A stretch of DNA of 64,000 bases from Planctomycetales bacterium 10988. GTDB lineage: Bacteria; Planctomycetota; Planctomycetia; Pirellulales; Pb10988. The notes beneath the pieces were generated by a model, which saw only the letters and a list, made by a program, of their open reading frames with translations, was not told the DNA's origin and made no database searches. The stretch is taken from assembly GCA_009664345.1 (NCBI GenBank), contig CP043547.1, positions 3,190,709 through 3,254,708 of the forward strand, in the 5' to 3' direction. Of the stretch, positions 5,226-45,477 are shown in pieces (position 1 is the stretch's first letter; each line of letters begins with the position of its first letter). The position numbers and the translations under genes are program-made.

Positions 5226-5273
5226 CGTATTTTTATTGATAGAGCAAGAGCTTTTTCTGACAGTTTTTTGATT

Positions 5274-5352
5274 CAGAGCCAGTGGTCAAAACCCTTCTGC
5301 AACAGGTAAACACCTGGAAAAGGCGACTCCCAAAGTACTTTTGACCACAAAC
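5274..5352 (-). repeat. Intergenic element with 10-bp inverted ends, copy A
   Basis: About 79 bp matching the element at 44670-44749 at roughly 85% by hand alignment, in opposite orientation. Perfect inverted ends GTGGTCAAAA (5282-5291) and TTTTGACCAC (5339-5348) enclose an internal hairpin CAGGT-AAAC-ACCTG (5303-5316). It sits between two same-strand membrane-protein genes. Size and ends suit a MITE-like or structured-RNA repeat. Confidence 0.7.
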
Positions 5353-5398
5353 TCTTAAAGTGTTCGTGTTGTCGTAAATAATCCTGACTCGAAAATGT

Positions 5399-43113: not shown

Positions 43114-43878
43114 ATGGCAGATAATACACAACTCAACTCCGGTACGGGAGGGGACTTGATTGCCACCGACGAAATTAGCGGAGTTAAGTTTCCTCGGGGG
43201 AAAATTACACTCGGGGCAGATGGAACTAACGACGGAGATGTGGCTGCTGCTAATCCTTTACCTATTGGGGGGAATATCAATGCCGTTAGTGTGGGAGATA
43301 TTAGGGCCTTTCGGGTTGACAGCGAGGGGCATTTGCAAGTCGATATTCAATCGCTTCCTCTAGCGACGGATGCCGCATCCGCAACGAAGCAAGACCTCAT
43401 AAACCTGGCTTTGACCGAGTTGACTGGGGGCATGGATGCGGGGCTTTTTCAAGTGGAAATCGTCAATCAGGCAAGTTTGATTGCAGGAACCGCCCGCGTT
43501 GGAAAGGTGGATGCCGCCGCGGAGGCTTCCGCGGAAGTGACCGGGTGTTTGCCTTACTTTAATGCTTCTGCCGATGAAACCGTGGCTTCGATCAAGCTCG
43601 CAGCGGGGCGGTTGTATGGCTTGGAAGTCCAGAACCCTGGCACTGAAGATGTTTGGCTTCAGCTTTTTGACTCTGCCGGAACGGTGACATTAGGCGTGAC
43701 GAATCCGGTCCTCTCTTTGCTGGTTCCTGCCGGCGATGGGGTGCGGAGCGGGGCGATGGATCAGCAGTTTCATCCTCCGATCGAGTTTTCGCAGGGGATT
43801 CAATACGCCTGCACGGCTTCGGCGACTGGCGATGAAGCACCGGAAGCGGCTTGTCTTGTCAACGCGATTTATCGTTAG
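43114..43878 (+). CDS. Phage-structural-like protein
   Basis: A 254-residue protein. The start, with GTGGDLIATDEISGVKFPRGK followed by LGADGTNDGDVAAANPLPI, closely follows a pattern common in phage tail or neck-region proteins (GGDxIATDDIxGVKYQRVK...GxxGxNDGDV). The remainder is a beta-rich domain (about 125-254) with IKLAAGRLYGLEVQNPG, typical of receptor-binding or fibre-associated proteins. The ATG lacks a perfect ribosome-binding site. A second such gene follows after 9 bp with a strong AGGAGG. No capsid, terminase or integrase gene is near. Confidence 0.75.
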   Translation: MADNTQLNSGTGGDLIATDEISGVKFPRGKITLGADGTNDGDVAAANPLPIGGNINAVSVGDIRAFRVDSEGHLQVDIQSLPLATDAASATKQDLINLALTELTGGMDAGLFQVEIVNQASLIAGTARVGKVDAAAEASAEVTGCLPYFNASADETVASIKLAAGRLYGLEVQNPGTEDVWLQLFDSAGTVTLGVTNPVLSLLVPAGDGVRSGAMDQQFHPPIEFSQGIQYACTASATGDEAPEAACLVNAIYR

Positions 43879-43887
43879 GAGGAACGC

Positions 43888-44658
43888 ATGTCCAAATATC
43901 ATCCATCTGTCCAGCCAAGTATTTTTTGTCCGGCTCGCTTGGAGTGGAGTGATGCCACGCACTTGGAGCTTCGCCCCGCCGGTGGGGTCTGGGTTTCCAA
44001 TCCATTGACGGGCGATCGCATGCAACTCGGAGCGAGCTTGCCCACGCTTACGAATAGCGGGCTGAGTGCGGAGACGCTCTATTATGTTTATTTTCAGGTA
44101 AAAACCGGGACTTTGACCGCATCCACGACGAGTTCGACCACGACAGATTCGGTAGAACATCAGACGGGGGCTGCGGATCAGATGCTTGTTGGCTGGTGTC
44201 GAACCGATGATTCGGCGGAATTTGTCTTCGAACCGGCACGGCGGTGGGTTTGTTCGTGCCATCAACCGCGGATGGTCCCGATGAAGGCCCAAGGGACCGC
44301 CGAATTTGGTTTGGCCGCCAATGGCTATTTCTTAGCTCCTTCCAATCCGATGACGCTCTCTTATTTACGGCATCCAGGGTTTGACGTCCTGTTCAATGCA
44401 GCGATGGTGGGGAGGCATAATGACGGCCTGCGATTCATTCTCGGCTTGGATGTCGGTGCGAACGCGAGCGTCCAGGGTCATGAACGGGGCACGCATCAAC
44501 TTTCCGGGGAAGCTCAAGCTATTGCCATTGCCACGGACCCGGCGGATGGCACGATTGCGTTCCGACAAACTCAAATTTTGATCGCCGGCAGCCCAGGGAC
44601 TTCGATCGATATCACCTCTGACCAAGGAACCTTCCATCAAGCAAATTGGTGGGGCTAG
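43888..44658 (+). CDS. Phage tail-fibre-like protein
   Basis: A 256-residue protein of mainly beta character. LEWSDATHLELRPAGG and GLSAETLYYVYFQVKTG..LTASTTSS are like repeats in phage tail-fibre or baseplate-associated proteins, in which short sentences on how a value is shown (AxTxYYVY) are frequent. The C-terminal half (RHPGFDVLFNAAMVGRHNDGLR, GHERGTHQL) is unfamiliar. AGGAGG at 43877-43882, overlapping the stop of the previous gene, gives strong translation. The two genes look co-transcribed and co-inherited. Confidence 0.7.
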   Translation: MSKYHPSVQPSIFCPARLEWSDATHLELRPAGGVWVSNPLTGDRMQLGASLPTLTNSGLSAETLYYVYFQVKTGTLTASTTSSTTTDSVEHQTGAADQMLVGWCRTDDSAEFVFEPARRWVCSCHQPRMVPMKAQGTAEFGLAANGYFLAPSNPMTLSYLRHPGFDVLFNAAMVGRHNDGLRFILGLDVGANASVQGHERGTHQLSGEAQAIAIATDPADGTIAFRQTQILIAGSPGTSIDITSDQGTFHQANWWG

Positions 44659-44669
44659 AAAATTTTAAA

Positions 44670-44749
44670 GTTTGGTGGTCAGAAGTAAATTGGAAGTCAC
44701 CTTTTCCCGGTGTTTACATGGTACAGAAAAGTTTTGACCACTGGCTCTG
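44670..44749 (+). repeat. Intergenic element with inverted ends, copy B1
   Basis: About 80 bp aligning with copy A at 5274-5352 in the opposite orientation. The left end TGGTCAGAAG has one change from the perfect inverted end; the right end TTTTGACCACTGGCTCTG is identical to copy A. It starts 12 bp after the stop of the tail-fibre-like gene. Confidence 0.7.
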
Positions 44750-44751
44750 TC

Positions 44752-44826
44752 TATGGTCAGAAGTTACTTGAGAGTTATTTCTTCCAAGTGCCAAACTGTA
44801 TCCATCGAGTTTTGATCACAGGTTCT
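44752..44826 (+). repeat. Intergenic element, degenerate tandem copy B2
   Basis: Directly after B1, TGGTCAGAAGT begins a second unit of similar length ending TTTTGATCACAGGTTCT. It aligns with B1 over its whole length but with many changes in the middle. It ends 15 bp before the next ATG. Confidence 0.6.
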
Positions 44827-44841
44827 TAGAAAGGGAGAAAA

Positions 44842-45087
44842 ATGTCCGGAGCGACGTCGTGGTTATTGTGGCAAACACTGAGCAGCCAATCCCATCCGGC
44901 CAAAGGGGGAGAGATCGTGGCCCAGTCGATTTGGCAAGGGAAAGGGGAGCTCGGCCAAGCTTGGCAGCCGGCTTTGAACGCTTTGTCGATTCATTTTGCT
45001 CAGGCAGAAGCTGGACAAAATTTCTCAGCCGGCGAACAAACGCATCAAATTTTTCAGGCAGGAACCCAGCAAAAAGAGCTGATTTAA
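44842..45087 (+). CDS. Small hypothetical protein of the phage-like island
   Basis: An 81-residue protein rich in Gln, Ala and Gly (SGATSWLLWQTL, then QAEAGQNFSAGEQTHQIF). It is probably helical and amphipathic; no transmembrane helix or family is evident. GGGAG lies five bases before the ATG. Together with the two phage-tail-like genes and the helix-turn-helix gene it lies in a 2.4-kb block with unusual content for this region. Confidence 0.55.
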   Translation: MSGATSWLLWQTLSSQSHPAKGGEIVAQSIWQGKGELGQAWQPALNALSIHFAQAEAGQNFSAGEQTHQIFQAGTQQKELI

Positions 45088-45132
45088 AAGGAGAACTCTC
45101 CGTTACATGCTTGCCTCAGGAGATTTAAAAAA

Positions 45133-45146
45133 TATACAATTGTATA
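45133..45146. promoter_or_regulatory. Palindrome, candidate operator
   Basis: TATACAATTGTATA is a perfect 14-bp palindrome, flanked by A-tracts on the left and, after one base, T-tracts on the right. It lies 32 bp before the start of the helix-turn-helix gene, a fitting place for an autoregulatory operator. It could alternatively form a weak AT-rich terminator for the preceding gene. Confidence 0.45.
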
Positions 45147-45177
45147 CTTTTTTATAACTCTTGCTGGAAGAAAATCG

Positions 45178-45477
45178 ATGGAATTTGGGGAAGAACGGTT
45201 GAGGAATCTCGAAGAGCGTTTGCAAACGCAAGCAGCGATGATCCATTCTTTAGAAAAGCGAGTCGCCCAGCTGCAATTGCAAAGTGTTCCCTCAGGGTTT
45301 CTTCCCGCCAGCCCCATTTACTCCATTGAGTTCGTGAAATCAAGTCTGCAAATCTCCGCGGATTCCTGGGCGAAACTGTTAGAGCACGGTCTCAAACCGT
45401 TTTGGTTAGGCGGCAGTAAAAAAATTCTCCATCAAGATTTCATTCGTGTCTGTCAAAGATTGGCTGAGAAAGAGTGA
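45178..45477 (+). CDS. Small coiled-coil protein with excisionase/MerR-like helix-turn-helix
   Basis: A 99-residue protein. Residues 4-36 form a coiled coil (ERLRNLEERLQTQ, then HSLEKRVAQLQLQ). Residues 55-95 read SLQISADSWAKLLEHGLKPFW, LGGSKKILHQDFIRVC: a helix, a W-x-x-L-LEHGLKP turn and a (G)GSKKIL-x-x-D segment typical of winged-helix excisionase or MerR-like DNA binders. It could regulate the island through the palindrome upstream. GGAAGA precedes the ATG. Confidence 0.65.
   Translation: MEFGEERLRNLEERLQTQAAMIHSLEKRVAQLQLQSVPSGFLPASPIYSIEFVKSSLQISADSWAKLLEHGLKPFWLGGSKKILHQDFIRVCQRLAEKE

What the first reader, a model, noticed from the sequence alone, without database searches (positions are those of the whole stretch)
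44670..44826. New-looking ~80-bp intergenic element with GTGGTCAAAA inverted ends, three copies in the window
Copy A (5274-5352, minus) and copy B1 (44670-44749, plus) align over their whole length at roughly 85% by hand, though 39 kb apart and surrounded by unrelated genes. Copy A has perfect 10-bp inverted ends and an internal CAGGT/ACCTG hairpin, so the strand can fold into an outer stem with an inner stem. B2 (44752-44826) is a third, more diverged copy directly behind B1. I know no described element with this sequence. It may be a MITE moved by a transposase elsewhere, a REP-like element, or a structured RNA.
Basis: partly seen in the sequence, partly recalled or inferred. Interest (0 to 1): 0.7.

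Follow-up and report, generated by a model that had tools for sequence, protein, structure and literature searches.

The report
High-copy MITE of an IS5-family transposon
The repeat is a small hitch-hiking piece of mobile DNA (a MITE of about 79 bp) present in about 150 copies in one planctomycete genome, with the same ends and the same 3-bp target duplication as a full-length IS5-family insertion sequence there: a new family of a well-known kind, not a new type of element.

Summary
The host genome (6.65 Mb, planctomycete) holds about 150 copies of a 79-bp element, nearly all full length, with constant boundaries. It ends in GAG...CTC inside 16-17-bp terminal inverted repeats with the core GTGGTCAAAA. 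The flanking 3-mer is duplicated (mostly TTA or TAA) in 65 of 131 copies, against 35 expected and at most 46 in 2000 shuffles. At least 14 copies of an 887-891-bp insertion sequence (IS) in the same genome have the same ends (16/17 and 14/17 identical), the same 3-bp duplication, and two overlapping ORFs for an IS5-family DDE transposase. The interiors are unrelated. This makes the element a type II MITE, mobilised in trans by an IS of the IS1031 group or by its ancestor. Copies are intergenic (130 of 131 by a crude gene caller) and unoriented. The outer stem shows no compensatory changes. The inner hairpin covaries mainly at one pair, along subfamily lines, so a structured RNA or REP function is not supported. 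The element was not found in 396 other genomes of the order. It is a new family of a known kind. What remains open is whether the interior does anything.

The parts
5276..5354 (-). MITE copy A, 79 bp, GAGTTTGTGGTCAAAA...TTTTGACCACTGGCTC on the minus strand
   Evidence: sequence; (100.1 bits, E 1.3e-18)
5355..5357 (+). flanking target 3-mer TTA at one end of copy A
   Evidence: 3-bp duplication established over 131 copies
5273..5275 (+). flanking target 3-mer TCA at the other end of copy A, one mismatch to TTA
44668..44747 (+). MITE copy B1, 80 bp, subfamily 1 (first base mutated: AAG...CTC)
   Evidence: (91.9 bits)
44665..44667 (+). flanking target 3-mer TTA, left of B1
44747..44825 (+). MITE copy B2, diverged, abutting B1; left end eroded, closest to subfamily 2 copies such as L012
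   Evidence: 83% to L012; 52.5 bits, E 1e-7
44826..44828 (+). flanking target 3-mer TTA, right of B2; the same 3-mer as at the outer left end of B1

Best explanation
[quoted passage not shown] A DDE transposase supplied in trans recognises its ends (GAGNNNGTGGTCAAAA) and inserts it at TNA, mostly YTWAR, duplicating 3 bp. The transposase is that of an 887-891-bp IS5-family IS in the same genome (IS1031 group by its 3-bp TNA duplication, 17-bp IR beginning GA[A/G]CCTGTG, and orfA/orfB), or of an ancestor or close relative of it. Shown: copy number, boundaries, 3-bp duplication, shared ends, transposase family, intergenic placement. Inferred: that this transposase acts on the MITE, that it still can, and that insertions into genes were removed by selection.
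For: Flanking 3-mers match in 65 of 131 copies against a shuffled mean of 35 and maximum of 46; neither 2-bp nor 4-bp duplications are in excess. All seven copies that have a partner at 97% identity or more carry a perfect duplication, in different targets TTA, TAA and TAT. Fourteen IS copies have both ends; 8 of 14 have matching 3-bp duplications TTA or TAA. IS and MITE ends are 16/17 (right) and 14/17 (left) identical in the terminal 17 bp, and the interiors align no better than shuffled. The IS proteins match DUF4096 plus DDE_Tnp_1 in Pfam and IS5 family transposase NF033580. The IS1031-group description (857 bp, IR GAACCTGT..., TNA, exclusive 3-bp repeat, -1 frameshift) is in PMC12016507. 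Copies lie between genes in 130 of 131 cases, whereas only 40% of TWA sites in the window are intergenic.
Against: No empty site was found: no close relative is held, and joined flanks had no informative match in the DNA on hand. Half of the copies lack a perfect duplication, as expected for old copies (mean pairwise identity 66%) but this is not proof. The MITE's left end differs from the IS at three positions (mainly TTT against CCT next to the tip). The MITE copies are more diverged from one another than the IS copies (about 90-98%), so the present IS may not be the one that amplified it. The gene calls come from a crude script, not an annotation.
Confidence: 0.93

Rival explanations
1. The element works as a structured RNA or regulatory hairpin (terminator, mRNA stabiliser or RNase III site) and its multiplication as a mobile element is secondary.
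For: The consensus folds better than shuffled sequence (RNA z -3.6). Inner hairpin pair 32-40 (C-G or T-A) is the strongest complementary pair of 2850 column pairs (z 4.3), and hairpin double complementary changes are 24 against 14.6 expected. The loop TTTTCC is more conserved than most of the interior.
Against: The outer stem has 3 double complementary changes against 2.5 expected, and RNAalifold finds none. The inner signal rests mainly on one pair that tracks the two subfamilies (columns 32, 40, 44, 58 and 59 vary together), so it may be one event. Copies are unoriented relative to tandem genes (28 same, 30 opposite). No Rfam match in the window, and only a sub-threshold chance-level one in the loci tested.
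Confidence: 0.04
2. A MITE mobilised by a different, now lost or unsampled, transposase with similar ends, rather than by the present IS lineage.
For: MITE copies are older and more diverse than the IS copies; the TIRs are not identical; there is no type I intermediate linking the interiors.
Against: Seven near-identical MITE copies with perfect duplications point to activity that is recent in relative terms. The ends agree in register over 16 of 17 positions and the duplication length is the same. Of the IS5-like copies examined, only this group has these ends.
Confidence: 0.2
3. REP or BIME-type element spread by a RAYT (Y1) transposase.
For: Small, intergenic, palindromic, high copy.
Against: DDE-type hallmarks are present: TIRs and 3-bp target duplications, and a DDE IS with the same ends. 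REPs are 20-40-bp palindromes, most with GTAG or CGTC tags, according to the abstract of PMC3733652 and its title.
Confidence: 0.01

Closest known systems
Type II MITEs of bacteria (review PMC10969869)
   Same: 50-500 bp, no coding capacity, TIRs shared with an IS, similarity confined to the TIRs, short direct repeats that wane with age, intergenic
   Different: very short and uniform (76-81 bp in nearly all copies), high copy (about 150), found so far in a single genome
IS1031 group of the IS5 family (e.g. ISLrh, PMC12016507)
   Same: the partner IS: 887-891 bp, 17-bp IR beginning GA[A/G]CCTGTG (ISLrh GAACCTGT...), TNA target, 3-bp duplication, two overlapping ORFs
   Different: the MITE shares only the ends; the IS's own IR continues GGTCAAAACTG, unlike that of ISLrh
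RUP, Correia and ERIC repeats
   Same: from PMC10969869 and general knowledge: small, high-copy intergenic elements taken as MITEs; RUP are found inserted in clusters and in one another, as B1 and B2 may have been
   Different: different sequences; RUP and Correia are linked (from memory) to TA-duplicating IS630-like elements, not to a 3-bp TNA IS5 element; no promoter or processing function was shown here

Membership tests
MITE | short, non-coding, dispersed multicopy element with constant ends | tested here: met
   131 copies examined, 68-81 bp, all but two 76-81 bp
MITE | terminal inverted repeats | tested here: met
   GAGNNNGTGGTCAAAA at both ends, TIR columns about 90% conserved; 36 exact TIR-pair matches counted over both strands against 0 for the reversed control
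MITE | target-site duplication | tested here: met
   65 of 131 against 35 expected, maximum 46 in 2000 shuffles
MITE | autonomous element with the same ends in the genome | tested here: met
   at least 14 copies of an 887-891-bp IS with matching ends
MITE | empty sites or observed transposition | tested here: inconclusive
   no other genome of the family is held; joined flanks had no informative hit in the DNA on hand
Type II MITE | similarity to the IS restricted to the TIRs | tested here: met
   interior scores 16 and 19 against shuffled means 16.5 and 16.9
IS5 family, IS1031 group (partner IS) | IS5-family DDE transposase | tested here: met
   Pfam DUF4096 and DDE_Tnp_1 above cut-off; NF033580 matched by both halves, each below the whole-protein cut-off of 110 bits because the reading frame is split (109.6 and 87.6 bits)
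IS5 family, IS1031 group (partner IS) | exclusive 3-bp repeat at TNA, about 0.85-0.9 kb, orfA/orfB | tested here: met
   definition from PMC12016507. IS427-group members in PMC3281130 mostly give 2 bp
IS5 family, IS1031 group (partner IS) | clusters with IS1031-group transposases in a tree | not tested
   no named reference IS set was available
Structured RNA | compensatory base changes preserving stems | tested here: not met
   outer stem 3 against 2.5 expected; inner hairpin carried mainly by one subfamily-linked pair
REP/BIME | 20-40-bp palindrome with a tag tetranucleotide, no TIR or target duplication | tested here: not met
   79 bp with TIRs and 3-bp duplications

The most novel reading that the evidence does not exclude
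The conserved interior hairpin (CACCT-TTTCC-AGGTG) is under selection of its own, as a DNA or RNA structure, so that about 150 domesticated copies act as a dispersed regulatory or chromosome-organising element in this planctomycete.
Probability: 0.06. Interest if true: 0.6.

Novelty: new member of a known kind. Interest (0 to 1): 0.25.

Why it matters
It defines, in one genome, a matched pair of IS and MITE with clear rules: ends GAGNNNGTGGTCAAAA, 3-bp duplication at YTWAR targets, old and more recent amplification waves, and near-exclusive intergenic survival. That explains these and about 150 other repeats in the genome and would help to annotate related planctomycetes. None of the papers found here describes such a MITE family in planctomycetes, but the open-access library is incomplete.

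Tried and rejected
IS701-type 4-bp YTAR duplication, suggested by the frequent flank TTAG: rejected because the fourth base is not shared between the two sides (4-bp matches 1 of 131). Structured RNA: see the rivals; RNAalifold and an ungapped column-pair test gave no stem-wide covariation. Rfam: nothing in the window. A scan of genome contigs with the right end gave 5 single chance-like matches in unrelated organisms with no convincing element around them. Plasmids: no match for the MITE, and only an 11% partial match for the IS. Empty-site search in held DNA: nothing usable. Homology of the interior to the IS: none.

Full report
OBSERVATION. The three copies are in the sequence. A model built from 29 of them (A1/R1) gave 149 matches at E at most 0.0032, all but a few spanning the whole 79 positions at full length. 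The exact core GTGGTCAAAA occurs 159 times, against 10 for its reversed control.

ANATOMY. I fetched about 130 copies with flanks and aligned each to the consensus. Consensus of subfamily 1: GAG TTT GTGGTCAAAA GTAAATTGGGAGTCACCTTTTCCAGGTGTTTACCTGNTTCTGAANG GTTTTGACCAC TGG CTC. A second subfamily (L090, L111, L113, L114, L117 and relatives; B2 and L012 lean towards it) has a different interior, GCATTTCGAGGGCCACTTTTTCCAAGTGCCTAACGATTTCTGCCGG, between the same ends. Length is 79 in 76 of 131 copies and 76-81 in all but two. Mean pairwise identity of 62 non-redundant 79-nt copies is 66%; TIR columns are about 90% conserved and the interior roughly 65-75%. This is the profile expected when the ends are kept for mobility and the interior is free to drift.

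TARGET DUPLICATION. Reading the element as GAG...CTC, the 3-mers on the two sides are identical in 65 of 131 copies, against a shuffled mean of 35 and maximum of 46 in 2000 shuffles. The excess sits at the second (z 4.9) and third (z 2.3) positions; the first is T almost always. Two-base and four-base duplications are not in excess. The commonest targets are TTA and TAA within a YTWAR context, and the left flank is T-rich. The seven copies that have a partner at 97% or better identity all have perfect duplications (TTA, TAA or TAT). For the window: A is flanked by TTA/TCA; the B1-B2 pair is flanked outside by TTA/TTA, with the inner junction eroded, which fits one copy having inserted at the edge of the other (inference).

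PARTNER IS. Four perfect inverted pairs of GTGGTCAAAA lie about 880 bp apart. They are copies of an 887-891-bp IS. A Pfam DUF4096 search found 47 matches in the genome in several groups. At least 14 IS copies carry both ends GA[A/G]CCTGTGGTCAAAACTG (some with one mismatch), and 8 of these 14 have matching 3-bp duplications TTA or TAA. The two overlapping frames encode an IS5-family DDE transposase. MITE and IS ends agree in register in 16/17 (right) and 14/17 (left) positions and then stop; interior alignment is no better than shuffled. By the definition in the review PMC10969869 this is a type II MITE. By PMC12016507 the IS has the features of the IS1031 group: TNA target, exclusive 3-bp repeat, IR beginning GAACCTGT, orfA/orfB with frameshift. 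IS427-group members in PMC3281130 mostly give 2 bp. I did not build a transposase tree.

STRUCTURE. Single-strand folding is better than shuffled, as any inverted-repeat element must be. The outer stem shows no compensatory excess (3 against 2.5; 0). The inner hairpin CACCT/AGGTG (with one flanking column pair) shows 24 double complementary changes against 14.6 expected, 15 of them at one pair (32-40) that changes together with other subfamily markers. Slid controls gave 2-11. I regard this as weak and possibly a single historical event.

CONTEXT. With a simple codon-score gene caller (not an annotation), 130 of 131 copies are intergenic, whereas 40% of TWA sites in the window are. Copies lie between divergent genes 45 times and convergent genes 8 times; background TWA sites in the window would give about 1.6:1, so there is some excess upstream of genes. 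Orientation relative to tandem genes is random (28/30), and in 19 cases a stop codon falls within 3 bp of an end. This fits insertion at TAA/TTA sites with loss of harmful insertions, and gives no sign of a polar function.

DISTRIBUTION. No other genome of the genus or family is held. The model is absent from 396 other genomes of the order at E 1e-7, and the exact TIR-pair pattern from 296; the IS itself is matched only by a 134-base, 79% piece in one of 396. The genome is a planctomycete by 26 matches to PSCyt2 (that this family marks planctomycetes is general knowledge); it is not named.

VERDICT. Ordinary in kind, well resolved in detail: a high-copy type II MITE family paired with an IS1031-like IS5 element. 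Open: proof of mobilisation, and whether the interior hairpin has any role.

Noticed in passing
G000:C1:408243 and 5087226 (L026, L025): A stretch of at least 2.7 kb around a MITE copy is duplicated at about 95% identity elsewhere in the chromosome, MITE included.
   Followed up: partly
G000:C1:661642 and 992184 (L226, L227): Two IS copies share the same right flank (TTAGTAGG) but not the left one, and neither has matching target 3-mers, which suggests recombination between IS copies.
   Followed up: no
G000, (L181-L194 and L195-L204): At least two further groups of IS5-like elements (DUF4096) occur in many near-identical copies; those inspected have no GTGGTCAAAA ends of their own.
   Followed up: partly
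G000:C1:2424360, 2309329, 3110295 (L217, L216, L222): Shorter derivatives with the same ends, one consisting of little more than the two TIRs, lie outside the 150 listed copies.
   Followed up: partly
window 43114-45477: Run of small genes around B1-B2 with no Pfam match above cut-off; the product of 43888-44658 is unidentified.
   Followed up: no
MITE copies: 19 of 131 copies have a gene's stop codon within 3 bp of an end, more than distance alone suggests; TAA/TTA target choice or truncation of genes by insertion could explain it.
   Followed up: no
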